NCBI RefSeq assembly: GCF_936916975.1
Contig: NZ_CAKZGO010000040.1
Span: 1-64,000 of the forward strand
Source: an uncultured Dongia sp.
Lineage (GTDB): Bacteria; Pseudomonadota; Alphaproteobacteria; Dongiales; Dongiaceae
Reading direction: 5' to 3'
Length of the DNA: 64,000 bases
The position numbers and the translations under genes were made by a program. Under the pieces are notes generated by a model. It saw only the letters and a list, made by a program, of their open reading frames with translations. It was not told the DNA's origin and searched no databases. Numbering within the stretch: the stretch's first letter is position 1; each line of letters begins with the position of its first letter. This document shows positions 1,733 through 51,248 of this stretch, piece after piece.

Positions 1733-2020
1733 ATGAACGCCGTCCTTCTGCGGCACGTCTCGGCACCGCCCAAGATGCTTTACGCGGCCCCGCGCCTGCT
1801 GATGCTGGAATTCTTGCTCGGCATGATTCTTGGCGCCCTGTTCCTGAACCCATTGGCGGCAATCGTCCTGTGGCTGGTCAGCCATCCCGTCGCCATCCTG
1901 ATCACGCTCAGAGAGCCCCATACCGACGCCTATCTGCAGGCGTGGGGAAGCTATCGGCATGTCCCAAACCACTGGCAAACGCCGCAAGGTGAAATGCGGG
2001 TGCGTGTCTATGTCTCTTGA
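1733..2020 (+). CDS. virB3: VirB3-like inner-membrane T4SS protein
   Basis: A 95-residue protein with two adjacent hydrophobic segments near residues 25-55 (MLEFLLGMILGALF and AIVLWLVSHPVAILI) followed by a polar tail, as in the VirB3 family, which sits in the inner membrane with VirB4. It lies between virB2 and virB4 as in the Agrobacterium and related operons, and its 3' end overlaps the virB4 start by 11 bases, suggesting translational coupling. Confidence 0.85.
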   Translation: MNAVLLRHVSAPPKMLYAAPRLLMLEFLLGMILGALFLNPLAAIVLWLVSHPVAILITLREPHTDAYLQAWGSYRHVPNHWQTPQGEMRVRVYVS

Positions 2021-4358
2021 ATCCTTCATCTTGCCGCTCGTCGCCACCGTCGTTCCGGTCCTAGCCGGGACGGCGGTCGCCCCCCTTTTGACGCGCTTCG
2101 TGCTTCCCCAAGCGCAAACCACGTTTCTGCGCGATCGCCTACCGTACACCAACATCAGCCCCGATGGCTGCACTGTCGAAATGCTCGGCAAGAAGGGCGG
2201 AGGCCTGTTCCGCGTCATCCATTTGCGCGGGCAAATCTACGCGGGCCTCACGTCAGAGGATTTGGCGGCCCTGTTCGGGCAGCGTAAGGCCTTCTTTGAC
2301 AGCATGACGGACCAACCGGTTCAGCTGCGCTTTATCTCGCAGCGCAGCCATTTGCCCGTCACCCCGCCGCCTATCCAGGATGGGCTTACCCAGCAGATCG
2401 ATAGCCGTTGGCATCAGCGCTTCGCCAACGCCTTCACGACCGACCATTACATTGTGATATCGGTCCCCACGGCCGACCAGCGCAAGCGCCTGGACCATGC
2501 CGAGCGGCTTATATTCGATCTCTTTAACCGCTACGGGCCGGAAGTGCTCAACAACGGCGAAGGTGACATCTCGCCCCTGCTGTCGTTCTTGGCATCATTC
2601 ATCAACGGCCAGGACTTGGTCCTACCGACCGTCTTAGACAACATCGGCGACCGCTTGCCGTTCGCGAATGTCGAATTCACACGCCACGGCGCCATCACCT
2701 ATCGTGATGGCACGAACGCCGTCCATCAGACCGCAATCGGCGTCCGGGCATGGCCGGAACGCTCGACGGCCGAGATCATCAACGGCCTCTTGCGCATCCC
2801 CGGCGCTATCACCGTTATTCTGAAAGCGCAGGCCTTTCAAAAAGCCGACGCGGATCTCCGCATTGCCAGCCGCGCGCGCCAGGCCAGGCTTGCCGTTTAC
2901 AATCCGCTGATTTCGCAAGAATGGAATGAAGCGAAAGACAAGGTGGGCGCGGCGCAGGAAGGTTTCTATCAAGCCGAACTCACCGCCTACGTTTCGGCAA
3001 CAACCACCGAAGAACTCGACCGCCTCGTGACGGACGTTCGCACCAGCCTTTCCAACCATGCTATTCGCGTGGTGAAGGAAACCATGCTGGCAGAACGCCT
3101 ATGGTGGGGACGCCTGCCCGGTTACGACTATTTCAGCCGTGACTATCATTTGGTCTCATCCAACCTCGCAGACTTCACGCCGTTGCCAGCAGAACCGCGC
3201 GGGCGCGATGCCTCGCAATGGGGCCCGCGCCCCATCCGCTATTTCCCGACAGCCTCCGGGGCACCTTACGGCTTTGTGTTCCACAAATCCGCGGCTGAGG
3301 ACCTTGCCCACTGGCTTGTCATCGGCCCGTCTGGTCGCGGCAAATCCACCCTGATCATGTCCCTGATCTTAGGCGCGCTGAGTGCCCACTCCGATCTCCG
3401 CGCCTTCGTTTTTGACCGCATGCTGGGCACAAAGACGACCTTCGATTGCTACGGCGGCGACTACCTTATTCCGGAAGACGAGCATCTGCCGCTCAATCCG
3501 TTCTTGGCGGATGACGGGTCGCCGGAATATCGCAACTTCCTTGAGCTGTGGTTGCGCATGCTGACCGGCCGGCACGATGATGATTCCATACAGCGGATCA
3601 CAACGGCGGTCGCCGACATCATGTCGGCCGACCCCGCCAACCGCTCTCTTGCTAAGCAGTATGCCCAAGTCTTTCCGACCGGCGAGCTTCGCAACGCCGT
3701 CAAGAAATGGGCCGCTGCCGGCCGCTATGGCCGCATCTTCAACGGCACCCGGGACGCGCTGAGCCTGACTGGTTCGCGTCTTGTGGGCTTCGACATGACA
3801 GCGATGTCAGACGATACCCAGCTATCGGCCGCCATGACCTACTACTTCATGCAACGCATTCGCCAGCTCGTGTTGAAGAACCCGACGCCGCATATCGCTT
3901 TCATCGATGAGGCACCGGCCCAGTTCAAGGACGAGTTTTTTGCGCAAAACGTCGAGGTGCTGTTCCGCGAGCATCGCAAGCTGAAAGGCTCGATCATTCT
4001 CGCAGCCCAAGATGCCGGCGCGTTCACCAAGCATAAAATTGCCGAAACGCTGCTGAACAATACGGCCGGTGTGATCTTCTTTCAGAACCCCAGCGCCCGG
4101 GTCGAAGACCTGGCGCCCTTCGGCCTGCAGAAAGAACAGCTCGATTTCATCTTGGGCCGCTCCGCAATTGCCCAGAGCCTACCGCGCTCGGTCCTCATCA
4201 GACGCGAGGACGAATCCGTCATTCTCGACATCAGCCTGAAAACGCTCGGACCATATTTACGCGCCCTTTCGTCCGGGATTGAAGACCGCAAAATCATTCA
4301 AGACCTCAAACAAAAATATGGAGAGACGCAATGGCTTCCCCACTTCATCCCCCTCTGA
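2010..4358 (+). CDS. virB4: VirB4 ATPase of the mating channel
   Basis: A 782-residue ATPase that powers pilus assembly and substrate transfer at the inner membrane. The Walker A motif GPSGRGKST is at about residues 439-447 and the Walker B IAFIDEA near residue 632; a QDAG-type motif follows at AAQDAGAF. Length and domain order match the CagE/VirB4 family. The ATG at 2010 is preferred over one at 1959 because it gives the usual short overlap with virB3, and the intervening residues have no VirB4 character. A hydrophobic N-terminal stretch (FILPLVATVVPVLAGTAV) could anchor it, or represent fusion of VirB3-like membrane sequence. Confidence 0.95.
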   Translation: MSLESFILPLVATVVPVLAGTAVAPLLTRFVLPQAQTTFLRDRLPYTNISPDGCTVEMLGKKGGGLFRVIHLRGQIYAGLTSEDLAALFGQRKAFFDSMTDQPVQLRFISQRSHLPVTPPPIQDGLTQQIDSRWHQRFANAFTTDHYIVISVPTADQRKRLDHAERLIFDLFNRYGPEVLNNGEGDISPLLSFLASFINGQDLVLPTVLDNIGDRLPFANVEFTRHGAITYRDGTNAVHQTAIGVRAWPERSTAEIINGLLRIPGAITVILKAQAFQKADADLRIASRARQARLAVYNPLISQEWNEAKDKVGAAQEGFYQAELTAYVSATTTEELDRLVTDVRTSLSNHAIRVVKETMLAERLWWGRLPGYDYFSRDYHLVSSNLADFTPLPAEPRGRDASQWGPRPIRYFPTASGAPYGFVFHKSAAEDLAHWLVIGPSGRGKSTLIMSLILGALSAHSDLRAFVFDRMLGTKTTFDCYGGDYLIPEDEHLPLNPFLADDGSPEYRNFLELWLRMLTGRHDDDSIQRITTAVADIMSADPANRSLAKQYAQVFPTGELRNAVKKWAAAGRYGRIFNGTRDALSLTGSRLVGFDMTAMSDDTQLSAAMTYYFMQRIRQLVLKNPTPHIAFIDEAPAQFKDEFFAQNVEVLFREHRKLKGSIILAAQDAGAFTKHKIAETLLNNTAGVIFFQNPSARVEDLAPFGLQKEQLDFILGRSAIAQSLPRSVLIRREDESVILDISLKTLGPYLRALSSGIEDRKIIQDLKQKYGETQWLPHFIPL

Positions 4359-5194
4359 CGTCTCAACCGGTTGTGACATCGCGCCACGTGGATAGAGACG
4401 ATGCCCGCGCACTTGCTGGCAAGTCTCGCGGTCGCTTTGGCAAAATCGTCGGCTTGAGCCTGTTCGGCTTCGCAGCCGTCGCTGTGCCGGCAGCCCTGGC
4501 AGCTTACCCGGTGACGGATGCCGGCAACCTCGTGCAGAACACCATGACGGCACTCAATTCCGTGAAGCAGCTCGGCGAATTGGTGAAGATCCTCTCCGAA
4601 GCCCAGAACATCTTTGGCGCCGTCGGCAAGGCCAAAGCCGCCGTCAACTCGATAGTTCCTAGCAGCTATTCGAATGTCGGCACGCAGGTTAATGCGGCGA
4701 CACCGCGCTTTGATAGCTGGGGCCTGGCGAAGGATGTTGCCCCCAACATCAGCTCGGTCAACAAGGCGATCGACTTTATTCAGGGCTCGCTCGACGTGCC
4801 GCCTGCCAAGGACGGCAAGAAACGCAAGGAAATTACGGCCGACGCGCAAGCGGACATTCTGCGGCGGCGATCTGCCGCCAACAAGGAAATCATGTTCCGC
4901 GCTCTTGGCACCGCGCAGAACGCGATTGCGACCGCGCAGGATGCGTCCAACACGGCCAATTCGATTGTCACGGCCGGCAATACCGATCTCCGGGAACAGA
5001 CGGCGCAGGCGATCCAGGCGACGGTTGGCAACACGCAGGAGCTCATTCAAATCCGTGTCTTGTTGGCAACGCAGCTCGAACTACAGGCGGCAGGGTTGAT
5101 CGCCGGTCAGCCTGTATCTGTCACCGCAGCTCGCAAGCCTTCGGAAACCGCCGAGGGCGACAGCGGCGACGTCACCAGTCCGTTTGGGAACTAA
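4331..5194 (+). CDS. virB5: VirB5/TrbJ-like periplasmic pilus-associated protein
   Basis: A 287-residue protein with a long polar N-terminus of about 35 residues, a hydrophobic segment (IVGLSLFGFAAVAVPAALA) that fits a signal peptide, and then a largely helical body rich in Ala, Gln, Asn and Thr. Helix patterns such as NSVKQLGELVKILSEAQ are typical of VirB5/TrbJ minor pilins. It overlaps the end of virB4 by 28 bases and has a strong GGAGAG ribosome site. The position between virB4 and virB6 supports the call; sequence recognition alone is moderate, as expected for this divergent family. Confidence 0.75.
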   Translation: MASPLHPPLTSQPVVTSRHVDRDDARALAGKSRGRFGKIVGLSLFGFAAVAVPAALAAYPVTDAGNLVQNTMTALNSVKQLGELVKILSEAQNIFGAVGKAKAAVNSIVPSSYSNVGTQVNAATPRFDSWGLAKDVAPNISSVNKAIDFIQGSLDVPPAKDGKKRKEITADAQADILRRRSAANKEIMFRALGTAQNAIATAQDASNTANSIVTAGNTDLREQTAQAIQATVGNTQELIQIRVLLATQLELQAAGLIAGQPVSVTAARKPSETAEGDSGDVTSPFGN

Positions 5195-5203
5195 TCAAGC
5201 TCC

Positions 5204-6151
5204 ATGAACTGTATAACCTGCAACATCTTCAGCGCTTGGGAAGAAGGCGCGACGCAATACGCCGAACAAGTGTCACAAGCTTTTTCGCCGATGCTCTTGC
5301 CGTTCTTTACCGCCGTTTTCACGCTGTTTTGGGCGTTTCGAATTGGCACTTTTGTCATGGGCGCGGATGTCGATTTCCTGACCACAGCCAAGGATCTATT
5401 CCTGGGCTGCGTTGCCGGCACGCTCATCACGTTTCCTGGCATCTGGGCCACTGTCATCGACACGTTCATGGAGACGTCCGTTGATCTGGCGACCTGGCTC
5501 GTGACCCTCGGCAACGCGCCAGCTGGAGATGGCTTGAGCGGCTTGCTCGCAGCCTTGGAAACGCCTCTGCTCGCCTTGATCAAGGGCACCTTGAAGATGG
5601 CGCAGGGCTCCGGCGACTGGTTCAGCGGATATTTTGGCGTACTAGGCGCCTTGGTGTTGTGGATCGTTTACGGGGTCCTTTGGTTCCTGCTCGTGATCGA
5701 CGCCGTCTGGTATTACACCAAGATCGTTCTGGTTGGCGTTCTTGGGCCCCTCCTCTTTATCTGCATCGCGGTGCCCACGCTGCGCGGCATTGCGATGCAA
5801 TCCTTTCGCTTGCTCGTTCAGTCCATCCTGGAGTTCGCGACACTTGGCGTCATGATTGGCCTCGCCGGCTTCATCCTTCAGCTATCGCTCACCTATATGC
5901 CGCTGGACGCCAGCGGTGCCGTCACGTCAAGCGGTGACGAGTATGTGGCGACCGATGACTATATGGGCGCGCTGCTTTGCGGCGCCCTCCTCATCTTCTT
6001 GCGCGGCTCTTTCAAGCATGTTGCCGCTCAGCTCGCCAACGCTGTTTCCGACAGCGCGCCAATCCGCCAAACCATGAGCGATATCAAGGGTGCCGTCTCA
6101 AAGATGGCTACCAGGGCCGCTCCCATGCCGACGCCTGCCCCAAAACCATAA
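5204..6151 (+). CDS. virB6: VirB6/TrbL polytopic inner-membrane protein
   Basis: A 315-residue protein with at least five long hydrophobic helices, for example around VLGALVLWIVYGVLWFLLVIDAV and VLLVGVLGPLLFICIAVP-like segments, ending in a polar Pro/Ala/Met tail. This matches VirB6/TrbL, the channel component that contacts the DNA substrate after VirB11. It starts nine bases after virB5 and precedes a small lipoprotein gene, the usual VirB6-VirB7 order. Confidence 0.85.
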   Translation: MNCITCNIFSAWEEGATQYAEQVSQAFSPMLLPFFTAVFTLFWAFRIGTFVMGADVDFLTTAKDLFLGCVAGTLITFPGIWATVIDTFMETSVDLATWLVTLGNAPAGDGLSGLLAALETPLLALIKGTLKMAQGSGDWFSGYFGVLGALVLWIVYGVLWFLLVIDAVWYYTKIVLVGVLGPLLFICIAVPTLRGIAMQSFRLLVQSILEFATLGVMIGLAGFILQLSLTYMPLDASGAVTSSGDEYVATDDYMGALLCGALLIFLRGSFKHVAAQLANAVSDSAPIRQTMSDIKGAVSKMATRAAPMPTPAPKP

Positions 6152-6172
6152 CGACCGTGTGAGGAACACTTT

Positions 6173-6325
6173 ATGAAGAAGCTTATCCTTATGGTGGTCC
6201 TCGCCGCCTCGCTCGCGGCCTGCACCAGCAGCCCCGCAAAGATCAAGGCGGACGAAGAATTGCCACCATCGCCCTGCGCCTGCGGGCCCCGCATTTATCC
6301 GCTTATGCAGGGCATGCCGGCATGA
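6173..6325 (+). CDS. virB7: VirB7-like lipoprotein
   Basis: A 50-residue lipoprotein. The N-terminus MKKLILMVVLAASLAAC is a lipoprotein signal with lipobox LAAC, followed by a short soluble peptide containing a CAC pair and a Pro-rich end. VirB7 anchors the VirB9/VirB10 core complex in the outer membrane. A good GAGGA site precedes the ATG, and the stop overlaps the virB8 start (ATGA). Size, lipobox and position between virB6 and virB8 make the assignment solid despite the lack of wider similarity in such short proteins. Confidence 0.85.
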   Translation: MKKLILMVVLAASLAACTSSPAKIKADEELPPSPCACGPRIYPLMQGMPA

Positions 6326-7050
6326 TGCCGCAACTACCCCGCATCAGCGGCAACCTCCGGCAATACGACACCGGCAGCGCCTATAACCGGGTCGCGGCCG
6401 CCAATCGGGTACTGATGAGCTATTCAATCATCGTCACAATTGCCTTCGTCATTGCCGCGGCCACCATCTGGTCACTGTTTCCCTTGAAGACGATTGTGCC
6501 GCAATTCGTCTATTTTTCCGATAAGCGAGAGCAGATCGTGACTGTCGAGCCAGGTCGCGTCAGCAAAGACACGGCCGACCTTCTCATCGAGAAGCAACTT
6601 AAGCAGCTCGTGCAGTATCGCGAAACGATCAACTGCATTGATGAGGGCGACCGCTACGCCTGGATACAGCGTGTCACCGATTTGCAGACCTTCGTCGCCT
6701 TCAAAAGCATGATGGACCCGAACGCCAACGCGAAAAGCCCGATCAAATCTTACTGTCAAAACAACATGGCCCGAGAGGTCTATATCTCGGCCGTCTATCC
6801 GAACAATTACGGCGCCGGCATCTGGACGGTCGATTTCGTCACCACCGACCGCAAGGTTGACGAGGTGATCGATCGCAAGGATCGCATCGCCACGATCGAA
6901 TTCACCATCTCGCCGCTCGACACCTCGCCCGATCGTGCCGACGAGAACCCCATTGGCATGACGGTCACGGGTTATCAGGCCCGCGACCGGGCCGCCGAGC
7001 AGCCGACCGACGCTAAAGACGCCATCCTAACTGACGAGGCCCAACAGTGA
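6322..7050 (+). CDS. virB8: VirB8 inner-membrane assembly factor
   Basis: A 242-residue bitopic protein: a cytoplasmic N-terminus of ~35 residues, one transmembrane helix (SIIVTIAFVIAAATIWSLF), and a periplasmic NTF2-like domain with the conserved pattern YAWIQRVTD, VYISAVYPN and a TVDFVTTDR strand. VirB8 nucleates channel assembly and contacts VirB9 and VirB10. It overlaps virB7 by four bases and the next small gene by four, so the whole block is translationally coupled. Confidence 0.9.
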   Translation: MMPQLPRISGNLRQYDTGSAYNRVAAANRVLMSYSIIVTIAFVIAAATIWSLFPLKTIVPQFVYFSDKREQIVTVEPGRVSKDTADLLIEKQLKQLVQYRETINCIDEGDRYAWIQRVTDLQTFVAFKSMMDPNANAKSPIKSYCQNNMAREVYISAVYPNNYGAGIWTVDFVTTDRKVDEVIDRKDRIATIEFTISPLDTSPDRADENPIGMTVTGYQARDRAAEQPTDAKDAILTDEAQQ

Positions 7051-7259
7051 TCCGCCTCGTGGCCCTTTCTGCCATTGCCACCGCTACGGCCGCTCGCGAA
7101 GCGACGGCCAATGAGTTGATCATCAATCAATGGGCGGGCCTGCAGCTGATCGCCACCTTTGATCGGCTGCCGATCGACTTCGCCAAGGCTGATGGCCGTG
7201 TGCTGGCTCGGAGCCGTGGCGAACCGTTCACGCCCATCAACGAGGACCTTTCTCAATGA
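7047..7259 (+). CDS. Small secreted protein between virB8 and virB9
   Basis: A 70-residue product starting with GTG, overlapping virB8 and virB9 by four bases on each side. The first ~20 residues (IRLVALSAIATATAARE) look like a weak signal peptide; the rest is a soluble segment, QWAGLQLIATFDRLPIDFAK. I do not recognise it. The canonical virB order has nothing between virB8 and virB9, so this is an accessory, probably periplasmic, member of the channel operon. The tight coupling argues that it is real. Confidence 0.6.
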   Translation: MIRLVALSAIATATAAREATANELIINQWAGLQLIATFDRLPIDFAKADGRVLARSRGEPFTPINEDLSQ

Positions 7260-8455
7260 CGTATTTCCGCACGTTGACAGCGTTGTCACTCGCCCTCGCC
7301 ACCACCTTGACACCGGTCGCGGCGAATCTTGCCCATGCCCAAGAAATCTTTGACGAAAACGGTGAGCTGCCGGCGAACCCCGACATTGAAGCACAGGTCA
7401 ACGGCGAATTCCCGAAGATGGACCGGTCCGTGCCGCCGCCTCTGGGGGCCCTTCAGCGCGCCTGGGACAATGCTGATATCGACGCCGGCATTACCCGCTT
7501 CAAGTACGAGCCCGGTCGCAGCTTCAAGATTATGACCCGCGAAGCCATGACCACGACCATTCGCCTTCCCGAATGGGAGTCCATCGAATCTATCATTCTC
7601 GGTGACCAGAGCATCTATCGCACTCAGCAGCTCAACGACAATACGCTTGAGGTCTGGACCACGATTCCGGGTTCGGACACAAGCTTGAAGGTCCTGGGTG
7701 ATAGTCAGAACATCTATTCGTTCTACGTTCGCAGCGAGACTTACAACTCCGGCAATCTGCCGGATCTTACCGTCTACATCGATGCTTCCGCCCCGGCGAT
7801 TTCTACACCGGCCAACAACGGCCCGACCGGCACCACGGGCGCTACCGGGCCCACCAGCATGTTTACGACCGGCGCCGGGGTCAGTAGCCAGGCTACCCTT
7901 GTAAGCAGTACCGGAGCGTCGCCGAATTGGTTGCGCGATCTCGGTTTTGATCCCACGCGGATCAAGCGCGATCGTGCGCTGTTTGGCGATGCGGAACTAG
8001 CGCCCGATGACATCTTTCGTGACGACCAGTTTACCTATCTTTGCTTTGGCGAAGCTTGGGACGACAGCAGCCTTATGGTTGCTGCACCCTATGAAGTCGT
8101 GGACGGCGTAGACCGCCAGGTGAATTTCCGCGTCTCCCACAATTGCATGATTGTCGAGACAACGGGCCCCCTCACCTTCCGTCGTGGCGACAAGGTTCTG
8201 TGCGTCCGTCCGGACACCGACAAAGTTACTCCCCGTCGATCGGCAGCCGCCGCGCGTGTTCGTCCCTTGCTACCCCAGGAGACGAGCGCGCCAGCGGCCG
8301 GCGATCTTCCCGCACCCTCAGCCGTCGAGCCAACGGCCGAGGGTGCGGCCTCTGCCACGACCACGCCTTCGGTGGCCCCGCTGCCGCCAACGCAGAAGGT
8401 CGCCACCGACAGCACGACCGGGCCCGATCTCCGACCGAAGAAGCACCAGAAGTAA
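7256..8455 (+). CDS. virB9: VirB9 outer-membrane core-complex protein
   Basis: A 399-residue protein, about 100 residues longer than typical VirB9. It has a signal peptide ending near ANLAHA|QEI, an N-terminal beta domain (YEPGRSFKIMTREAMTTTI, a strand pattern typical of VirB9/TrbG), a Gly/Thr/Pro linker around residues 182-225, and the C-terminal domain with FTYLCFGEAW and RVSHNCMIVET, which binds VirB7 and VirB10. The last ~80 residues are Ala/Pro/Thr-rich and look disordered. It overlaps the preceding gene by four bases and virB10 by one. Confidence 0.88.
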   Translation: MTYFRTLTALSLALATTLTPVAANLAHAQEIFDENGELPANPDIEAQVNGEFPKMDRSVPPPLGALQRAWDNADIDAGITRFKYEPGRSFKIMTREAMTTTIRLPEWESIESIILGDQSIYRTQQLNDNTLEVWTTIPGSDTSLKVLGDSQNIYSFYVRSETYNSGNLPDLTVYIDASAPAISTPANNGPTGTTGATGPTSMFTTGAGVSSQATLVSSTGASPNWLRDLGFDPTRIKRDRALFGDAELAPDDIFRDDQFTYLCFGEAWDDSSLMVAAPYEVVDGVDRQVNFRVSHNCMIVETTGPLTFRRGDKVLCVRPDTDKVTPRRSAAAARVRPLLPQETSAPAAGDLPAPSAVEPTAEGAASATTTPSVAPLPPTQKVATDSTTGPDLRPKKHQK

Positions 8456-9480
8456 TGATGCTGCTCCGCGCTGCGACCCTCAGTCTTGCCGGCCTTGTGA
8501 TCCTTACCGCGTGTGGCCCAGAGGAACAGGCGCCGGCGCCGCGCAAGGTCGAGAATACCCTGCCGGCCGACTATTTCACGCCGCCCCCAGCACCGCCGCC
8601 GCCGCCACCTCCCCCACCCGAGCCGGTGCCCGAGGTCGTGGAAGAAGTAGCGCCACCGCCGCCACCGCCTCCTCCTCCGCCACCACCACCCGATCCGGCG
8701 CCGGGGCTGCGCGCGCTTGATGCTGCCCGCATTCTCGCCAAGCGTTGGGAAGTCGGGCCGCAAGTCAACGCGCCGGCCAAGGACTCGACCGTTGCCGAGG
8801 TTGACCCGCGCATGGTCGATAAGGATTACAGCCGCGATGAAGCGCCGCGCGTCGATAGCGGCCTTCCGGTTGATCGGCACCGCTGGATCACGGCGGATCG
8901 CGTGATCAACGCAGTGCTGATCACCCCGATCAATTCCCAACTGCCGGGCATGGTCCGGGCTGTGGTGGACAGCAACGTTTATGGCTCGGATGGGCGCTTG
9001 ATCCTGATCCCGAAAGGATCGGTCGCCCTTGGCCGCTATGCGTCCTTGTCGAAAGTCGGTGAAACCCGCTTGAATGTGCAGTGGTATCGCATCATTCGCC
9101 CGGATGGCGCGCATATCTGGAACGATGAGGAGCCCTTTTTCATCGCCCAGGACCTTGCCGGCCGCACTGGCTTGATTGGTGAGGTCGACAATCGCGTGTG
9201 GGAGCGTTACGGCGCTGCCTTCATCACCAGCCTCTTATCCGCCGCTGCGTCAACGACCGTCGCCCTTGGCGATAACGTCGCGCTCAACAATGCCGGCAAC
9301 AACATGTCTCAGCAGCTCGCCCAGGTGACGGCGAAGGTCCTGGATCAGAATTTGAACCTAGCGCCGATCATCACGATTGACGCTGGTTCACTTATGACCA
9401 TCGCGCTTACCAAGGACGTCTATTTGCGCGATCCGATTTATCCAAATGATGAAGAAGAATCCCCGGAGAACGTGCAATGA
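8455..9480 (+). CDS. virB10: VirB10/TrbI core-complex protein with an N-terminal lipobox
   Basis: A 341-residue VirB10-family protein. A long proline-rich spacer (residues ~42-82) is followed by the conserved beta-barrel domain: INAVLITPINSQLPGMVRA, GSVALGRY, RLNVQWYRIIRPDG and a C-terminal LAPIITIDAGSLMTIALTKDV. VirB10 spans from the inner to the outer membrane and senses ATP use by VirB4/B11. The start at 8455 forms a TAATG junction with virB9. From this start the N-terminus is a lipoprotein signal with LTAC, Cys at residue 20, instead of a cytoplasmic tail plus transmembrane helix. An alternative upstream start would need a ~300-base overlap with virB9. Confidence 0.9.
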   Translation: MMLLRAATLSLAGLVILTACGPEEQAPAPRKVENTLPADYFTPPPAPPPPPPPPPEPVPEVVEEVAPPPPPPPPPPPPPDPAPGLRALDAARILAKRWEVGPQVNAPAKDSTVAEVDPRMVDKDYSRDEAPRVDSGLPVDRHRWITADRVINAVLITPINSQLPGMVRAVVDSNVYGSDGRLILIPKGSVALGRYASLSKVGETRLNVQWYRIIRPDGAHIWNDEEPFFIAQDLAGRTGLIGEVDNRVWERYGAAFITSLLSAAASTTVALGDNVALNNAGNNMSQQLAQVTAKVLDQNLNLAPIITIDAGSLMTIALTKDVYLRDPIYPNDEEESPENVQ

Positions 9481-9491
9481 AGGATCGCGCA

Positions 9492-11780
9492 ATGAAAACC
9501 GTCCGCATAACGCTTGCGGCCCCGTTCTTAGCGGCGCATTTGGCGTTGCTGGTGCCTCTTGGCGCCTACGCTCAGACCGCCCCTACCTATGTGGCACCTA
9601 CCTATGTGGCACCGACCGGCACCACGCCCGCCACAGACCCGACCACGCCGGTAACGCTCGGCACGCCCGGGTCGTTCGGCACAACCGCGCCGACAGACAG
9701 CAAGGCCGCGCCAAAAGCTGGCACTCTTGCCACGAACCCGAGCCCGTCGCGCGGCACGTCTGCGGCAACTACCGCTGACAAGAAGTCGCAGCAAAAGATC
9801 ACGACCTCCCTCATCGAGCCGACATCTTTGCAAGACCCCGCCACGATCAATGCTCGACTGCCCGGCCTCACCACCCAACCCAAATTGGCCGACATTGGCG
9901 ACAAGCTCAATCAGGTCATGATTTCTGGCACACCAACGGTCAAGAATGGCCGCGTCACGATCGATTGGACGACCGTCAGTCGTTCGGACACCGGCCAGAC
10001 GGTAAACCTGCCGGCCCCGCTGGCCAGTGCGCTGCGCACCAAGGCGCAGTCATTGCCGGCGAAAACCAAGATCGCCGCCAAAGGCGATGCGGACGAACTC
10101 TATGAAGCTATCCGCACGCTCTTTGCGGCGCAGCCCGCCAGCGCCGGCCTCACCAACGCGGCCGGCAAATCTAGCGGGCAACAGGGGGGTGGTTCGACAC
10201 CGACCGCAGGCGGCCAGCAGACGACAAATGGTGACGTGAAGGCCCTCGCCTCCAAGGCCACCGACACCTCATCGTCATCCAATGAGGAAACCAGCGTTTC
10301 GGTCGATACAACGACGGAAGGCTGTTCCATCCGCATTGATATCCCCCAGGGCGTTGTCATCCAGCAGGAGGCGGTTATCACGACCGTCAATGGCAAGGTG
10401 GAACGTGGTGCCTGCGAAGACGGGTCGCTCCGCTGGCCCATTCGCAAGACCGGACTTGGTTGCACGGATCAAATCCGCGACACCGAAGCCCAGGGCCTCA
10501 CCAGACAGTATTATATCAACGACAAGGGCGAAGAACTGCCGGTACAGGAATGCGCTCTCGATAATGAACTGATCTATCCGATTGTCGAGGAAATCGGTTC
10601 TTGCCCCATGTACACGGACGAAAGCACCCGTCGCGTGTTCGACCAAGCCGAGCGCGTCTATCGCAATAACATGAATGTCCGTAGCATCGTCACTGATTGC
10701 GCGCCGACCGGTGATGGCTACGCGCTCGAAACCACGCCCGAGGGTTGCCAGTTCCGCGACGACTTCACGGCTGGCAGCAGCGTCCAGCAGATTCGGGACT
10801 TCTACGTCAAGAACGGCACCATGTTTTATACCGGTTCCTGCTATGATGGCCAGCAGACCTACGCCCACCAGTTCGAAGAATGCAGCGTTGCAATCGATGT
10901 TCCCGGCGGCATGGTCTACAACGCTCACCGCATCTTTATCAATGGCCCGAGCGGCAAGGCCTATCGGTCGGAATGCACGCCTTACGGTGCCGGCAGCGCC
11001 ATCACGGCGACCACGGATGGTTGCCAGTCAGTACATTATGACTATCCGCCCTTGCAGCAGTCGCGCGGCTCGGAACGGCTCTACTACATGGCAGGTGCAA
11101 CCCGCACCTATCTGACCCAATGTCAGGAATCCACCGCCGTCTACAATTGGGACCTTGTCGTTGCTGGTTATCAGCACAACGACGAAGCCAAGACCTCGAC
11201 GGAGATCCTTGCCGCCAACATCAACATACCGGGTGTTGGCGTGGTGCAGGTATCAGCACCCGCCGTTCGTGACGTATCGGCAATTATTCCCTACATGTTC
11301 GAGGAAACGAAAGACATCGCCAACGGTGAGCCTAAGACCTATGCGAGCTGCAACGCCTATGTTCCGACCGACAAGGTGCAGGTCTATCGGCGTGCCGACC
11401 AAACCACGTACACGGTCAAAGTCGGTGCCGGTGCTCCGCAAGGTCCGGTAGACGAGTGTACACGCTCTGATGAGTCGCGGACCACGTTCAGTCACGCCTG
11501 CGCTGGTACAAGTCCGGACTGCAACCCGAAGCTCGCAGGACCGAAAGGCAACACGACTTCGGGTGATCCAAGTTGCGCATCCGGTGCTGTGAGTCCTTCT
11601 ACGGGTTTCAACTGGAGCAAAGTTGAAACACGCACAACGACAACTATGCCCGCAGGTGCCGGCGGTGAGTCGATTGTCGGCAATTGGGCGCTGAAGAACT
11701 ACCTGCAATTATCTATGTGGATGCACTACTCCTATCCCCCGTCAGGACAAGGCTCGTGCAAAGACACCGGTAAAGATTGA
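9492..11780 (+). CDS. Large secreted cysteine-module protein inside the T4SS operon
   Basis: A 762-residue exported protein of unknown function. The ATG at 9492 has an AAGGA site and opens a signal peptide (VRITLAAPFLAAHLALLVPLGAYA). An ATG at 9477 that overlaps virB10 is possible. A Thr/Pro/Ala-rich, probably disordered region (to about residue 270) is followed by six modules of about 45 residues (~276-555), each with a Cys near its start and another about 30 residues later, with an aromatic-rich strand before the second Cys; motifs include EGCSIRID, LGCTDQIR, GSCPMYTD, EGCQFRDD, EECSVAID and DGCQSVHY. Further cysteines follow in a C-terminal domain (HACAGTSPDC). Coupling to virB10 and the terminator right after it place it as the last product of the core operon. 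A surface or mating-pair role is inference. Confidence 0.85.
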   Translation: MKTVRITLAAPFLAAHLALLVPLGAYAQTAPTYVAPTYVAPTGTTPATDPTTPVTLGTPGSFGTTAPTDSKAAPKAGTLATNPSPSRGTSAATTADKKSQQKITTSLIEPTSLQDPATINARLPGLTTQPKLADIGDKLNQVMISGTPTVKNGRVTIDWTTVSRSDTGQTVNLPAPLASALRTKAQSLPAKTKIAAKGDADELYEAIRTLFAAQPASAGLTNAAGKSSGQQGGGSTPTAGGQQTTNGDVKALASKATDTSSSSNEETSVSVDTTTEGCSIRIDIPQGVVIQQEAVITTVNGKVERGACEDGSLRWPIRKTGLGCTDQIRDTEAQGLTRQYYINDKGEELPVQECALDNELIYPIVEEIGSCPMYTDESTRRVFDQAERVYRNNMNVRSIVTDCAPTGDGYALETTPEGCQFRDDFTAGSSVQQIRDFYVKNGTMFYTGSCYDGQQTYAHQFEECSVAIDVPGGMVYNAHRIFINGPSGKAYRSECTPYGAGSAITATTDGCQSVHYDYPPLQQSRGSERLYYMAGATRTYLTQCQESTAVYNWDLVVAGYQHNDEAKTSTEILAANINIPGVGVVQVSAPAVRDVSAIIPYMFEETKDIANGEPKTYASCNAYVPTDKVQVYRRADQTTYTVKVGAGAPQGPVDECTRSDESRTTFSHACAGTSPDCNPKLAGPKGNTTSGDPSCASGAVSPSTGFNWSKVETRTTTTMPAGAGGESIVGNWALKNYLQLSMWMHYSYPPSGQGSCKDTGKD

Positions 11781-11788
11781 TCAACTCA

Positions 11789-11821
11789 GGCGGCCGGCTG
11801 ATGCCGGCCGCCTTTCATTTT
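11789..11821 (+). terminator. Rho-independent terminator after the virB2-virB10 unit
   Basis: Perfect 10-base arms (11789-11798 and 11803-11812) enclose a TGAT loop and are followed by TTTCATTTT. It lies nine bases after the stop of the cysteine-module gene and before virB11, so virB11 probably depends on read-through or on its own promoter. Confidence 0.85.
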
Positions 11822-11843
11822 CTCCGATCATCTGGATCGATTG

Positions 11844-12755
11844 ATGGACGAGTTTTTAAGACCGCTTATGCGTTGGGTAAATCACAAGAACGCCGCCGAA
11901 GTGCTGGTCAATCGCTTCGGTGAAGTCATTGTTGAATGCCACGGCGAAGACCCGCGGCCCATCAAAGACCCGGCGCTGACCCAAGAGTATTTCGAGCGGT
12001 TGGCGCGCATGCTGTCCAACAAACTCGAAATTAAAGACTTCGAGAAGAAGCCCATTCTCGCCACCAAGCTCCCGGGCGGTCACCGCCTGCAGCTCAACAT
12101 TGGCTCGTTCGTCCTCTCCGGCATCGCCCTATCTGTCCGCGTTGCCAGCACGAAGGAGTACCGCCTTGATGACTACGCCTGCAGCCCGGAAACCGTGGAG
12201 CTACTGACGAAGGCCCTCGTCGACGGCCTCAACATCGTGATTTCAGGTGGGACCTTCTCGGGCAAAACGCAGTTTATGAATGCCCTTGGCAAATTCATCC
12301 CTGATAAGCAGCGACTGTTGACGGCCGAGGACGTGGACGAACTCAAGCTCGACCATGTTCACAACCTCGTTCGCTTTGTCGTCAACCGCCTCAGCACGCG
12401 TGAAGAGATCACCTATCGCGACGTCATCGATAGCATGACGCGCATGCGGCCGGACCGCATCTGGGTTGGCGAAATGTCGATTCAGAACACCTGGATTCTC
12501 TTGCGCTTGCTCGATACCGGTCACGCCGGCCTGCTCACCACGATCCATGCCGACTGTCCGGCCGGTGTTTTTGACGCCATCGAGCGCAACATCCAGCTGG
12601 CCGGTTTCGATAGGACCGGTGTGCGCGACTACTTCATGAACAAGATCGATCTTGTCGTGCAAATCCGCCGCCGGCCCGGGACTCATGTTCGCGAGGTGAG
12701 CGCTATTCATCGCCGCGGCGATGACCTCTCCGCCACGCCATCCCTCTTCCACTAA
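11844..12755 (+). CDS. virB11: VirB11 traffic ATPase
   Basis: A 303-residue hexameric ATPase of the secretion-ATPase family that docks under the channel and switches VirB4 between pilus assembly and DNA transfer. Walker A is GGTFSGKT at residues 135-142, an unusual Phe replacing the common Gly; the Asp box (RLLTAEDVDELK), Walker B region (RPDRIWVGEM) and His box (GHAGLLTTIHAD) are all present. The ATG at 11844 is used; a TTG directly before it is also open. It is separated from the upstream virB genes by a strong terminator. Confidence 0.93.
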   Translation: MDEFLRPLMRWVNHKNAAEVLVNRFGEVIVECHGEDPRPIKDPALTQEYFERLARMLSNKLEIKDFEKKPILATKLPGGHRLQLNIGSFVLSGIALSVRVASTKEYRLDDYACSPETVELLTKALVDGLNIVISGGTFSGKTQFMNALGKFIPDKQRLLTAEDVDELKLDHVHNLVRFVVNRLSTREEITYRDVIDSMTRMRPDRIWVGEMSIQNTWILLRLLDTGHAGLLTTIHADCPAGVFDAIERNIQLAGFDRTGVRDYFMNKIDLVVQIRRRPGTHVREVSAIHRRGDDLSATPSLFH

Positions 12756-13381: not shown

Positions 13382-13473
13382 CACATTTCAGAGTTGGACA
13401 AGCCTAAAATGCGTTTTAGGCAACGGAATGTGTTGACTTTTTGCTGCGCTCCCATTTGGGGAGCTTGAATGAC

Positions 13474-19304: not shown

Positions 19305-19581
19305 CCGTCGCTCGCCGGTCGGATCTCGTTACCGAGATACTGGCCGGCGCCGCGCCGCCAGTCGGGCCAGCCAGCGGCGGGCACGCCTGCCGCTGGCTGG
19401 GATTCTCACATTGACGCACTCGACATAGCCAGGTGTCGACTTGCACGTAAATCGGAGAATCCGCGGACCGATGAGGAACTGAGACACGTGCAAACCGACA
19501 GTTTGGGTATTTCTGGGTCATTAATTGGGTAATTAACCATCCTTCTTGCTCTTTTGGATATTTTTGGGTATATTTTTGGGT

Positions 19582-20681: not shown

Positions 20682-21074
20682 ATGATGGTTCAGGAGTATC
20701 CGTTTCCGGAGCAGACCGCGTTGGAAGGTGCGGGATATTGCGTGTTCCCGCCCCAACTTGAAAATGATGAACTGGTCCTGTTCCATGGCACGTCGGCTGA
20801 GAATTCGGACGCCATCCTGCGCGACGGTTTCAAAAGCGCAGTGACCCTTGGCACCGGCAATCTAACATCGGTGTCCTTCACCTATAAAAGTATGGCTGCG
20901 TTGACGCATCTGGCCAACCGGAACGGGGCTCGTGTAATTCTAGCCGTGCGCTATGAGACCCTCGATCGTCGGACGATCACTAAAAATTCGAGCGACATTC
21001 ACGACTATACGCTCGATCCGGCCCCCATTGTAATTGGGATTTGTCATTTGCCGCTCGACTACCGGCATACCTAG
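20682..21074 (+). CDS. Small ADP-ribosyltransferase-like protein
   Basis: A 130-residue product. The segment LVLFHGTSAENSDAILRDGFK fits the first strand and helix of ADP-ribosyltransferase folds (HGT motif, with a small residue run and a DGF turn); a Tyr-containing strand follows (VSFTYKSMAALTHLA) and a late strand DPAPIVIGI. These are candidates for the H-Y part of the triad; a catalytic Glu is not obvious. It starts 47 bases after the Fic gene and may belong to the same unit. An RNA 2'-phosphotransferase or phage-type ART are alternatives. I rate the fold as likely, the activity as unknown. Confidence 0.5.
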   Translation: MMVQEYPFPEQTALEGAGYCVFPPQLENDELVLFHGTSAENSDAILRDGFKSAVTLGTGNLTSVSFTYKSMAALTHLANRNGARVILAVRYETLDRRTITKNSSDIHDYTLDPAPIVIGICHLPLDYRHT

Positions 21075-21369: not shown

Positions 21370-21490
21370 CAGCAGAAAGGCGGGCCGCAGCCCGCCTTTC
21401 GATTTTGTGCCCTAAAGGCTTGTTAACGGCTGCGACGACCCGAGGGGTATCGCTGACGGCGCACGATTTCCTATCGGCTAAGATATTTGG
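21370..21490 (-). ncRNA. tracrRNA for the type II-C system
   Basis: The plus strand at about 21445-21484 contains a near copy of the reverse complement of the CRISPR repeat (CACGATTTCCTATCGGCTAA is identical in 19-20 positions). Read on the minus strand, this gives an anti-repeat at the 5' end, then a short ACCC-CTC-GGGT nexus-like stem, a GCC..GGC stem, and a terminator hairpin at 21376-21399 followed by TCTGC. That order is the normal tracrRNA layout. The anti-repeat pairs well with the 3' half of the minus-strand crRNA repeat, with a bulge before a second pairing block. The transcript diverges from cas9. The 5' end near 21490 is an estimate. Confidence 0.75.
21376..21399. terminator. Bidirectional hairpin ending the tracrRNA
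   Basis: Ten-base perfect arms, 21376-21385 and 21390-21399, with a CGCA loop. On the minus strand it is followed by TCTG; on the plus strand by CGATTTT. It would end the tracrRNA on one strand and also plus-strand transcripts arriving from the Fic side. Confidence 0.75.
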
Positions 21491-21557
21491 AATTACGCTT
21501 TACAACTGTCTATTTTCCCGCATTGAATTGCAAGAGCAATTATTGGGGGAGTGGCCG

Positions 21558-24500
21558 ATGAACTATCGTCTCGGCCTGGACGTCGGCACCAATTCCATCG
21601 GCTGGTGGCTTGTGACGCTTGATAAAGCCAATCGGCCAGGCGGATCGCTGGCAGGCGGCGTACGCATATTCTCGGATGGACGAAACCCAAAGGACGGTAC
21701 GTCGTTGGCGGTGCAGCGTCGAGTACCGCGCGGGATGCGCAAGCGGCGCGACCGCTATTTGAGGCGGCGCACCGATCTCATGGCGCTGCTAATCGCGACT
21801 GGTTTGATGCCATCAGACGAAGCAGAGCGCAAAGGACTGCAAACCCTAAATCCTTACGCACTGCGCGACTTGACAGTGACACAACAGGTTCGCCCTCACG
21901 AACTCGGCCGCGCCATCTTTCACCTCAACCAGCGTCGCGGGTTTAAATCCAATCGTAAGACCGACAAGAACGAAGACAACAAGATCACCGAGCGGATCGG
22001 CGAATTGAAGCGCCGCATCGCCGAGAGCGGCAGCATAACCCTTGGCCAGTATCTGCATCGCCGCAGGCTGAAGGATAAAATGGTCCGTGCCCGACCTGAA
22101 GCTGGTTTCTATCCCGAGCGCGCACTGTATGAAGAAGAGTTCGATCAAGTCCGCGCTACACAGCAAGCTCATCAAACGCTGAATGACGCACAATGGGATG
22201 CGATCAAGGATATCATTTTTTACCAACGCCCCCTAAAGCCGGTCGATCCTGGCTGGTGCCTGCTGGAAAGCGGGGAACGACGTGCGCACCGAGCCCTGCC
22301 CGCAGCGCAAGAGTTCCGAATGGTGCAAGAAGCGAACAATCTGCGCGTTCTGCAGCGCGGCCAGGGGTCACAACCGCTTTCGCAGGAACAGAGGGATAAG
22401 GTCCTGGGAGAACTGCGCGGTACTAAGGAACTGAAATTAGAGCGGCTGTTGAAATTGCTGAGTCTTCCAGATGGCGCGCAGATCAACCTTCTCGACGAAC
22501 ATCGCACAGTGTTGAAAGGTGACGAAACAGCAGCACGATTGTCACACAAACATATCTTCGGCAAGACGTGGCGCCAATTCACGTTCGAGCGACGGAGCGC
22601 CATCGTACATAAACTGCTGAAAACGGAGCAGCCCGAAGAAATCATGCGCATCGCGCGGGCTGAGTGGGGCCTCGATGAAGCGGCAGCATTGAAACTCACA
22701 CATCTGCCGTTGCCAGAAGGATATATGCGCCTTAGCGAAACGGCCATTCTGAAACTGCTGCCGCTCATGGAGGATCAGGGCCTCGGATATGCCGAAGCCG
22801 CTGCGGAAATTCCAGAGTACGGTCATCATTCTGACTTCAGGTCTGGTGAAGCACATGACCGCTTGCCCTACTACGGCGAAGTTCTTGCCCGCCATGTCGT
22901 CGGCGCGGACCCGACCAGACCTCGCACCGATGAAGTGGGACACTTCGGCCGCATCGCCAACCCCACGGTCCATATCGGACTGGGTCAAATGCGCCGTCTC
23001 GTCAACCGGTTGATCGAAATCTACGGCAAGCCTGAAGAAGTCAATATCGAAGTAGCGCGCGAGTTGAAGATGAACCAGGAAGAGAGGGAAAAAACACGCA
23101 AGACCAACAGCGACAATGAAAAGGCGAACCGCCGTCGCGAAGATCAGATTCGCGCTGCCGGCGGCGTGCCATCGCCCGACCTGCTGCGCAAATTGCGCCT
23201 GTGGGAGGAACAGAAAGTTGGTGCCATCAATGTGTGCCCCTTCACCGGAGCAGCCATTTCCCTCGCGATGTTGCTCACCGACGCGACCGAGATTGAACAC
23301 ATACTACCTTTCTCCAAGACACTGGACGATTCGATGGCCAACAAGGTGCTGTGTTTGCGTGAGGTGAATCGCGTCAAACGCGACCGGTCACCGTTTGAAG
23401 CGTTCCAAACCAATCTCCAGGCAGGACGCTATGCCTGCTCCTATGTTGATATCATCGCTCGGGCCGGCTCGCTGCCGCCGAACAAGAGATGGCGCTTCGA
23501 ACCCGATGCAATGGAGAGGTTCGCGCAAGAGTCAGGATTCCTCGACCGCCAGCTTAATGAGACCAAATATCTCTCCCGCATTGCACGCGCTTACTTGGCA
23601 ACTCTCTACAATGAGAAAGGCGAAGGACGTCTACGGGTGCGCGCTATTCCCGGCAAGCTCACGGCCATGTTGCGCGGCAAATGGGGACTGAACAGCCTGT
23701 TGCGCGATCACAATCGGCTGATCGGCGACGCTCCCAAGAAGAACCGCGATGACCATCGGCATCATGCCCTGGATGCTTTCGTCATCGCCATGACCGACCA
23801 GGGCATGCTGCAGCGGATTGCAGCCCTAAATTCCGATGCTGACCGGTATCGGCTGATCGACGTGATGCCAGCACCCTGGGAGGGTTTCACGCCCGATAGC
23901 CTGCGGCCACAGCTCGATCGACTAGTCGTCTCACATAAGCCGGATCACGGCACATTCGACGGCAAGAGCACTAGCGGCGCCCTGCATAACGATACCGCCT
24001 TTGGCCTGCTGCCCAAGGACAGCGATCCGCGCGGTAATGTGGTGGCACGCGTTGCGCTTACCAGCATCAAGAAGCGCGACGAGATCGGCAGGATCCGCGA
24101 CAGAGCGTTGGCCACTGCCCTGGAGCAACTGTGGGACGATGTCGCTGCTTCCGGCGGTAAACCCGCCGACTTCGCCGCTCGCGCGCAAAAGGAGGGCATT
24201 GCGATCGGCGGCCGGCGCATGCATGTGCGGCGCGCCCGCATGATCAGTAATGAGCAGACGGTCGTATTTATCCGAGATCGTAGGACGGGCCAGATGTATA
24301 AAGCGTACAAGCCGGACGGCAATGCTTTTGCCGACATCTATCGGCTGCCCGATGGCAATTGGAATGCTGTCGTTGTGCGACGCTTCGATGCGAACCAGCC
24401 CGATTTCGATCCTTGTCGGATGCGCCCGCATCCGGCAGCCAGAAAGATCATGCGGCTGCACAATGACGATATGGTCGCCGTGGATGACAATGGCCGCAGG

Positions 24501-24713
24501 CGCATCCTCCGGGTGGTCAAAATGTCCGGGCAGACAATTTTCCTGGCCGATCATCTGGAGGCCGGGAGTCTCAAGAAACGCGATCAAGACAAGGAGGATT
24601 CCTTCAAGTACCTCGCCAAATCGGCCAACAGCTTTCGCAAAATGAAACTGCGCAAGATCGGCATTGATGAGATCGGACGCATCAGCGACCCTGTCGTTCG
24701 GCGATATAAATAA
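21558..24713 (+). CDS. cas9: Cas9 nuclease, type II-C
   Basis: A 1051-residue RNA-guided nuclease, a normal size for type II-C. All catalytic residues are visible: RuvC-I Asp8 in LGLDVGTNSIGW, RuvC-II Glu498 in NIEVAREL, HNH His581 in EIEHILPFS with a downstream Asn in MANKVL, and RuvC-III His736/Asp739 in DHRHHALDAF. The arginine-rich bridge helix is at residues ~54-75. The C-terminal ~300 residues would hold the wedge and PAM-interacting domains. The ATG at 21558 is used because the RuvC-I strand begins there; the open frame upstream crosses the tracrRNA. Downstream is the CRISPR array. No cas1, cas2 or csn2/cas4 gene is present in the window, so spacer acquisition must come from elsewhere or not at all. 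Confidence 0.97.
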   Translation: MNYRLGLDVGTNSIGWWLVTLDKANRPGGSLAGGVRIFSDGRNPKDGTSLAVQRRVPRGMRKRRDRYLRRRTDLMALLIATGLMPSDEAERKGLQTLNPYALRDLTVTQQVRPHELGRAIFHLNQRRGFKSNRKTDKNEDNKITERIGELKRRIAESGSITLGQYLHRRRLKDKMVRARPEAGFYPERALYEEEFDQVRATQQAHQTLNDAQWDAIKDIIFYQRPLKPVDPGWCLLESGERRAHRALPAAQEFRMVQEANNLRVLQRGQGSQPLSQEQRDKVLGELRGTKELKLERLLKLLSLPDGAQINLLDEHRTVLKGDETAARLSHKHIFGKTWRQFTFERRSAIVHKLLKTEQPEEIMRIARAEWGLDEAAALKLTHLPLPEGYMRLSETAILKLLPLMEDQGLGYAEAAAEIPEYGHHSDFRSGEAHDRLPYYGEVLARHVVGADPTRPRTDEVGHFGRIANPTVHIGLGQMRRLVNRLIEIYGKPEEVNIEVARELKMNQEEREKTRKTNSDNEKANRRREDQIRAAGGVPSPDLLRKLRLWEEQKVGAINVCPFTGAAISLAMLLTDATEIEHILPFSKTLDDSMANKVLCLREVNRVKRDRSPFEAFQTNLQAGRYACSYVDIIARAGSLPPNKRWRFEPDAMERFAQESGFLDRQLNETKYLSRIARAYLATLYNEKGEGRLRVRAIPGKLTAMLRGKWGLNSLLRDHNRLIGDAPKKNRDDHRHHALDAFVIAMTDQGMLQRIAALNSDADRYRLIDVMPAPWEGFTPDSLRPQLDRLVVSHKPDHGTFDGKSTSGALHNDTAFGLLPKDSDPRGNVVARVALTSIKKRDEIGRIRDRALATALEQLWDDVAASGGKPADFAARAQKEGIAIGGRRMHVRRARMISNEQTVVFIRDRRTGQMYKAYKPDGNAFADIYRLPDGNWNAVVVRRFDANQPDFDPCRMRPHPAARKIMRLHNDDMVAVDDNGRRRILRVVKMSGQTIFLADHLEAGSLKKRDQDKEDSFKYLAKSANSFRKMKLRKIGIDEIGRISDPVVRRYK

Positions 24714-24743
24714 TTGTTATATCAATGACTTACTGCCATTCCG

Positions 24744-25101
24744 AACTTAGCCGATAGGAAATCGCGCGCCAGCCGCAACCGGGCAACTGAACATAGATGT
24801 AGACGTAGAGTTTAGCCGATAGGAAATCGCATGCCAGCCGCAACCGTGAGCGAAGCCGTGGATGAATAATTTAGCCGATAGCAAAGCACGCGCCAGCCGC
24901 AACGTATCTCCTGCTCGCGGGTCATGGCTCAACAGTTTAGCCTATAGGAACTCCCGCGCCAGCCGCAACGAAGGGCGGCAGGCTTGAGGAGTCAGCCGTA
25001 GTTTAGCCGATAGGAAGTCGCGCGCCAGCCGCAACCAGCCCGCCGCAGAGGTGCCGTACCACTAGAGTTTAGCCGATAGGAACTCCCGCGCCAGCCGCAA
25101 C
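24744..25101 (-). CRISPR. Six-repeat type II-C CRISPR array
   Basis: Six 36-base repeats at 24744, 24809, 24868, 24934, 25000 and 25066 separate five spacers of 29, 23, 30, 30 and 30 bases. In plus orientation each repeat reads A(G)TTTAGCCGATAGGAA, then a variable middle (AATCGCG, CTCCCGC, GTCGCGC), then GCCAGCCGCAAC. The minus-strand reading (starting GTTGCGGCTGG) is preferred as crRNA sense: it matches the tracrRNA anti-repeat, and the copy nearest cas9 (24744) is degenerate at its minus-strand 3' end, as expected of the last repeat. The leader would then be right of 25101. The repeats at 24809, 24868 and 24744 carry more changes than the others. Confidence 0.93.
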
Positions 25102-26562: not shown

Positions 26563-26574
26563 CACCAATCCCAA

Positions 26575-27219: not shown

Positions 27220-27291
27220 TGGTCCCGACCTTTGGATGGGCGATCAACCTATTCCCATCAGTCTGCCACTCCAATGGCATTTTTACGATGC

Positions 27292-27894: not shown

Positions 27895-27897
27895 GGC

Positions 27898-28890: not shown

Positions 28891-28894
28891 TGTA

Positions 28895-46284: not shown

Positions 46285-46683
46285 ATGGCAACACCACATT
46301 TGCAATCCGAATTGGCACAGCTCCTCATTTTCGTTTCCAAAGTCTCGCAAGCTATCCGCAGCAATACCGCATTCAATAGCAGCACCTTTGGCGATCGGCA
46401 GGCACACGTTGACGCCATGTATCTTTCGGACACCCTCCATCGAATGCACCGGCTTGGCCGCGCCATCATCGAGCTGCAGCCCGTGCAGATCAGCGCCGTT
46501 TGTGACGACCTCATAACGCTGTTTGAGGATTACCGCGCGCCGGCCGGGCCTTTCGCCAAAGGCGGCGCGCCCGAGTGCTTCGCACGCCACAACACCTATT
46601 TCCGCCTAACCGACGCCATCGAACTATTCCAATCGATCAAGCAAAAATCCCTCGCCTCGCTGCAAGGAGACGTCGCGCCATGA
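46285..46683 (+). CDS. Small helical hypothetical protein before virD4
   Basis: A 132-residue soluble helical protein (QSELAQLLIFVSKVSQAIRS, HVDAMYLSDTLHRMHRLGRAII, RLTDAIELFQSIKQK). It overlaps virD4 by four bases (ATGA), so it is co-translated with the coupling protein. No family is recognised. It could be a coupling-protein adaptor; this is inference from position. Confidence 0.65.
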   Translation: MATPHLQSELAQLLIFVSKVSQAIRSNTAFNSSTFGDRQAHVDAMYLSDTLHRMHRLGRAIIELQPVQISAVCDDLITLFEDYRAPAGPFAKGGAPECFARHNTYFRLTDAIELFQSIKQKSLASLQGDVAP

Positions 46684-51238: not shown

Positions 51239-51248
51239 GGAGCGCAGC

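What the first reader, a model, noticed from the sequence alone, without database searches (positions are those of the whole stretch)
21370..25101. Orphan plasmid-borne type II-C Cas9 with an antisense tracrRNA and a short, drifting array, no cas1/cas2
cas9 is complete with all catalytic residues, but no adaptation genes are present anywhere in the window. The tracrRNA, on the minus strand upstream of cas9, and the array, best read on the minus strand, converge on cas9 from either side. Repeats differ among themselves in the middle (AATCGCG, CTCCCGC, GTCGCGC), unusual for an array with active acquisition. A mobile Cas9 may use a fixed set of spacers for plasmid competition, or control genes with its long anti-repeat.
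Basis: partly seen in the sequence, partly recalled or inferred. Interest (0 to 1): 0.65.

Follow-up and report, generated by a model that had tools for sequence, protein, structure and literature searches.

The report
Plasmid Cas9 with frozen CRISPR memory
A conjugative plasmid in an alphaproteobacterium carries a complete Cas9 with its guide RNAs but has lost the genes that record new invaders, and its tracrRNA has an extra hairpin inserted where it pairs with the guide, a variation absent from nearly all of its relatives.

Summary
cas9 is 21558-24713 (1051 aa, catalytic residues intact) on a 131.9-kb conjugative-plasmid contig (RepA, ParA, VirB-type T4SS, VirD4, relaxase). A 6-repeat/5-spacer array begins 30 bp after the cas9 stop; the tracrRNA is on the minus strand upstream. 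No Cas1 was found in the 5.48-Mb genome, nor another array with this repeat.

Of about 75 related loci, nearly all that are not cut by a contig end keep cas9-cas1-cas2-array, so adaptation genes were lost here. Repeats average 2.3 mismatches per copy, against a median of 0 (maximum 0.25) in 49 relatives' arrays; changes avoid repeat positions 1-12 and the -10-like end.

The antisense tracrRNA and converging array are the ordinary II-C layout, and CampyICE1 is a direct precedent for a mobile II-C Cas9 without cas1/cas2. The spacers match nothing, so plasmid competition is unproven.

The new part was not in the finding: a 26-nt hairpin splits the anti-repeat at the bulge, predicting a three-way crRNA:tracrRNA junction. 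55 of 56 relatives have 0-6 extra nt there (the other is a trimming artefact); three other alphaproteobacterial loci share the hairpin. Verdict: a II-C variant, mostly explained, with one guide-RNA feature worth testing.

The parts
21558..24713 (+). cas9, type II-C, 1051 aa, apparently intact
   Evidence: TIGR01865 564 bits; RuvC_III and HNH_4 Pfam domains; catalytic residues invariant
21375..21482 (-). tracrRNA: anti-repeat, inserted hairpin, lower-stem strand, nexus, terminator (5' end not known)
   Evidence: complementary to the repeats; orthologue with covarying terminator in G172, G032, G319
21458..21482 (-). anti-repeat, upper-stem part
   Evidence: pairs with repeat positions 10 onward
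21432..21457 (-). 26-nt insert holding a hairpin (paired part 21432-21453) between repeat positions 9 and 10 of the duplex: predicted three-way junction
   Evidence: 26 nt excess against 0-6 in relatives; fold z = -3.6; aligned in four loci
21422..21431 (-). lower-stem strand AGCCGUUAAC, pairs with repeat 5' end GUUGCGGCU
   Evidence: cofold; GUUAACAAG motif shared with relatives that lack the hairpin
21375..21400 (-). tracrRNA terminator hairpin
   Evidence: 10 pairs, 4 with compensatory changes among four sequences; listed on the + strand by the scan, the stem is palindromic
24744..25101 (-). CRISPR array: six 36-nt repeats (GTTGCGGCTGGCGCGCGATTTCCTATCGGCTAAACT consensus on the minus strand), five spacers
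24714..24743 (.). 30-bp gap between cas9 stop and last repeat; in relatives this place holds cas1, cas2 and a leader of about 60-95 bp that usually holds an inverted repeat
1959..12755 (+). VirB-type T4SS genes (VirB4, VirB8/9-like, VirB11): plasmid context
33596..34537 (+). plasmid RepA (PF04796)
46575..48395 (+). VirD4-type coupling protein

Best explanation
A type II-C CRISPR-Cas9 locus captured by a conjugative plasmid, which has lost cas1, cas2 and the integration leader by deletion and now works as a frozen, non-learning interference system. Each repeat carries its own -10-like promoter end on the minus strand and yields one crRNA; the minus-strand tracrRNA pairs with it, host RNase III trims the duplex, and Cas9 cuts DNA that matches one of the five inherited spacers. 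The guides most likely act against other mobile elements that compete with the plasmid or attack its host. In this lineage the crRNA:tracrRNA duplex is a three-way junction because a hairpin is inserted at the bulge. Shown by sequence: intact Cas9, tracrRNA, pairing, absence of cas1 in the genome, repeat drift, hairpin. Inferred: transcription, processing, cutting, and the identity of the targets.
For: Cas9 complete. No cas1 in the genome, no remnant on the contig. Of 31 genome-contig loci whose contigs reach past cas9 all keep cas1 and cas2, so the state here is derived. Repeats average 2.33 mismatches per copy and none equals the consensus, against a median of 0.0 and maximum 0.25 in 49 relatives' arrays; the cas-proximal repeat, the newest in II-C arrays (PMC12080349), is normally perfect (mean 0.02) but has 2 mismatches here. 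Signs of retained function: all nine variable positions lie outside repeat positions 1-12 (chance 0.014) and outside 1-12 plus 31, 32, 36 (chance 0.003) (sets chosen after seeing the data); all six repeats still pair with the tracrRNA; repeats end in TAnnnT in the window and TA is invariant in 53 relatives' repeats. Cas9 codons against G172: pN 0.205, pS 0.758. Precedents: CampyICE1; plasmid systems carry adaptation modules in 36% against 88% on chromosomes (PMC9071438).
Against: No spacer has a convincing target in plasmids, phages, IMG/VR or the own genome, so the anti-plasmid role is an analogy. One spacer is shortened to 23 nt and one repeat has four mismatches, which also fits slow decay. 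The purifying-selection signal covers the whole split from G172 and may predate the loss of cas1/cas2. No expression data.
Confidence: 0.72

Rival explanations
1. The locus is a decaying remnant: after the loss of cas1/cas2 the array drifts neutrally and Cas9 is on its way to inactivation, with no present role.
For: Repeat divergence in every copy, a shortened spacer, no findable targets.
Against: Open reading frame and all catalytic residues intact; repeat changes avoid the Cas9-bound 5' part and the -10 positions; tracrRNA terminator and lower stem conserved.
Confidence: 0.18
2. Cas9 and tracrRNA were recruited to regulate genes (scaRNA or tracr-L style), and the array is incidental.
For: Precedents in other type II systems (own knowledge); no spacer targets found.
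Against: No match of 11 nt or more to the 38 nt 5' of the anti-repeat elsewhere in the window; spacers have no good match in the own genome; the array keeps its pairing part.
Confidence: 0.05
3. The plasmid uses the adaptation machinery of another host in trans and still acquires spacers when it moves.
For: Suggested for other mobile systems (PMC9071438).
Against: Present host has no Cas1 at all; the leader region seen in relatives is gone; repeats are not homogenised.
Confidence: 0.05

Closest known systems
CampyICE1 CRISPR-Cas9 (PMC8743540)
   Same: Type II-C Cas9 on a conjugative element, no cas1/cas2, short arrays, own tracrRNA
   Different: CampyICE1 is a chromosomal ICE with up to three arrays and a tracrRNA inside an array; most of its spacers match Campylobacter plasmids, while none match here; hosts are unrelated; no bulge hairpin reported in the parts read
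Alphaproteobacterial type II-C loci (L004-L035, L063, L076-L115)
   Same: Homologous Cas9 (30-47% full length), same tracrRNA position and strand, same array orientation, 36-nt repeats starting GTTG and ending TAnnnT
   Different: They keep cas1, cas2, a leader, homogeneous repeats, and no hairpin in the anti-repeat
G172 contig 46 cas9 fragment (L061)
   Same: 69% identical over Cas9 1-255; tracrRNA orthologue with the hairpin
   Different: Contig ends inside cas9, so array and cas1/cas2 status are unknown

Membership tests
Type II-C CRISPR-Cas | Cas9 with RuvC and HNH motifs | tested here: met
Type II-C CRISPR-Cas | CRISPR array with tracrRNA complementary to the repeat | tested here: met
Type II-C CRISPR-Cas | No csn2 or cas4 (separates II-C from II-A and II-B) | not tested
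   No csn2 or cas4 search was run; the genes next to cas9 that were scanned (Fic, DarTG and others) are neither
Type II-C CRISPR-Cas | cas9-cas1-cas2 operon | tested here: not met
   adaptation loss is known in II-C (PMC8743540), so the effector is II-C but the locus is incomplete
Type II-C CRISPR-Cas | Promoter in each repeat, array read toward cas genes | tested here: inconclusive
   TAnnnT end kept in all six repeats and TA invariant in 53 relatives; transcription not measured
Mobile anti-plasmid CRISPR-Cas (CampyICE1-like) | Located on a conjugative element | tested here: met
   T4SS, VirD4, relaxase, RepA, ParA on the contig; contig ends do not overlap, so circularity is not shown
Mobile anti-plasmid CRISPR-Cas (CampyICE1-like) | Spacers match competing plasmids | tested here: not met
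   absence from the collections does not exclude targets

The most novel reading that the evidence does not exclude
This Cas9 lineage uses a crRNA:tracrRNA guide with a true three-way junction: a hairpin inserted at the bulge of the repeat:anti-repeat duplex that Cas9 must accommodate and may recognise, giving an orthogonal guide architecture with a natural insertion site.
Probability: 0.5. Interest if true: 0.6.

Novelty: new variant of a known kind. Interest (0 to 1): 0.42.

Why it matters
It is a further example, in a different class of bacteria, of a conjugative element carrying Cas9 as a fixed weapon without adaptation, and it shows the mark that losing cas1/cas2 leaves: repeats drift except where they are needed. 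If the three-way junction is real, it shows that the bulge of the Cas9 guide duplex tolerates a whole hairpin in nature, which bears on guide orthogonality and on guide RNA engineering.

Tried and rejected
Repeat-like hit in contig C12 (80% over 40 nt): lies at an isolated coding-region site without array neighbours, taken as chance. Seed matches of spacers 2, 4 and 5 in IMG/VR: mismatches over the rest of the protospacer, 18-22 identities, about the number expected by chance. Spacer hits in plasmids and phages: bits of 39-43, E 0.4 or worse. L015 (labelled Chloroflexi) as a close relative: the sequence upstream of its cas9 C-terminal part is unrelated, looks chimeric, set aside. Excess of 39 nt in L093: the search motif GTTAACACG was missed by the trimming, an artefact. 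One origin of the hairpin: the Cas9 tree joins the window with G172 (100/100) but does not resolve G032 and G319. More hairpin examples: tracrRNA model over 384 genomes gave only the same three high scores (131, 123 and 117 bits, next 52). Rfam: no tracrRNA family hit above gathering.

Full report
Observation. The window is the first 64 kb of contig C40 (131,920 bp) of a 5.48-Mb alphaproteobacterial genome. The best 16S matches among plasmid-borne copies are Azospirillum at 92%, so the host is only distantly related to it. cas9 runs from 21558 to 24713 on the + strand and encodes 1051 aa, covering TIGR01865 nearly end to end. D8, E498, H581, N604, H736 and D739 are invariant. Six 36-nt repeats follow at 24744-25101, starting 30 bp after the cas9 stop. 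The anti-repeat lies at 21458-21482 and the tracrRNA reads on the minus strand to a terminator at 21375-21400.

Plasmid. The contig carries VirB4, VirB8/9-like and VirB11 genes, a VirD4-type coupling protein, RepA and a ParA-family protein and a MobA/VirD2-like relaxase just beyond the window at 62153-64033. Its ends do not overlap, so it is a conjugative plasmid by content, not shown to be closed.

Loss of adaptation. Cas1 (PF01867) is absent from the whole genome, while the same model recognises the Cas1 of a relative. I collected 32 relatives from 84,980 species genomes and 43 from a draw of the class plus G013 of the same family. Apart from loci cut by a contig end, all keep cas1 and cas2 downstream of cas9, with one exception: in L079 (G258) cas2 follows cas9 directly and cas1 was not found. 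Relatives also have a leader of about 60-95 bp, usually with an inverted repeat, between cas2 and the array; the 30 bp here have none. cas1, cas2 and leader were therefore probably lost together. No remnants were found.

Drift. In 49 arrays of relatives the median number of mismatches per interior repeat is 0.0 and the highest 0.25, the latter in L079, the locus without a detected cas1. The cas-proximal repeat is almost always perfect (mean 0.02). Here each copy departs from the consensus (2, 2, 4, 3, 1, 2). This fits an array that no longer copies its newest repeat; in II-C the last repeat, next to the cas genes here, is the one used for acquisition (PMC12080349). The nine variable positions avoid repeat positions 1-12, which pair with the tracrRNA nearest the spacer-bearing end, and positions 31, 32 and 36, which form a TAnnnT -10-like box that is invariant at T31-A32 in 53 relatives' repeats. 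Chance of this is 0.014 for 1-12 alone and 0.003 for both, with the caution that I chose the sets after seeing the data. All six repeats still pair with the tracrRNA at -84 to -100 kcal/mol, against -61 +/- 3 for shuffled repeats.

Layout. In the relatives the tracrRNA lies on the minus strand upstream of cas9 and the array reads toward the cas genes. A large survey found upstream and reverse to be the commonest tracrRNA arrangement (79.2% and 69.8%; PMC10278012). The converging arrangement is therefore ordinary.

The hairpin. In the predicted duplex, repeat positions 1-9 pair with AGCCGUUAAC and positions 10 onward with the main anti-repeat, and 26 nt of tracrRNA lie between. That insert folds alone at -11.7 kcal/mol (z -3.6). 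In 56 relatives with both array and tracrRNA the excess is 0-2 nt in 52 and 5-6 in three; the one remaining value is an artefact of trimming. G172 (Cas9 69% identical over 255 aa), G032 and G319 have the insert at the same place. The hairpin has one compensatory pair (C-G to U-A) among four sequences, with three pairs invariant and three broken in part, so covariation support for it is weak; the terminator has four pairs with changes on both sides. A covariance model scored only those three above 52 bits in 384 genomes. The three other loci end at contig edges before the array, so the junction is shown complete only in the window. The tree joins the window with G172 but leaves the others unresolved. 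In the literature searched, only the IscB structure combined tracrRNA and three-way junction; non-canonical tracrRNA folds are known to be common, so I do not claim that nothing similar has been drawn before.

Function. Best reading: a frozen interference system carried for the benefit of the plasmid. The direct precedent is CampyICE1, a conjugative element with a II-C Cas9, no cas1/cas2 and short arrays, most of whose spacers match competing plasmids. Plasmid systems in general lack adaptation modules far more often than chromosomal ones. Here no spacer target was found in plasmids, phages, the own genome or IMG/VR, so the targets are inferred. The Cas9 comparison with G172 shows purifying selection (pN 0.205, pS 0.758) but cannot be dated to after the loss.

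Verdict. The finding is right in its facts and largely explained by known biology. Its fresh part is the interrupted anti-repeat.

Noticed in passing
window 25531-30613: DarTG toxin-antitoxin pair, a tyrosine recombinase and an OLD-like ATPase/TOPRIM protein lie just beyond the array, with a Fic protein at 19546-20634 before cas9: a defence-rich cargo region on the plasmid.
   Followed up: partly
window 13441-14850: A 469-aa protein joins a RepC-like N-terminal region with a DnaA_N domain at its C-terminus; a separate RepA_C protein lies at 33596-34537.
   Followed up: no
L079 (G258:C2:600000-616000), cas9 3818-7018: cas2 follows cas9 by about 185 bp and no cas1 was found; its array has the highest repeat divergence of the 49 relatives. 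Possibly an independent partial loss of adaptation.
   Followed up: partly
G057:C9:700024-700478 and G279:C1:877901-878608: Two tracrRNA-model matches each upstream of cas9; possible duplicated tracrRNA.
   Followed up: no
window 51225-61163; C40 81178-96174 and 108148-116313: Very long open frames of 3312, 4998 and 2721 codons on the plasmid; the first is an RTX-repeat protein (34 calcium-binding nonapeptide stretches). The other two were not examined.
   Followed up: partly
window 20682-21074: 130-aa frame next to the Fic gene with a weak RNA 2'-phosphotransferase (KptA/Tpt1) match.
   Followed up: no
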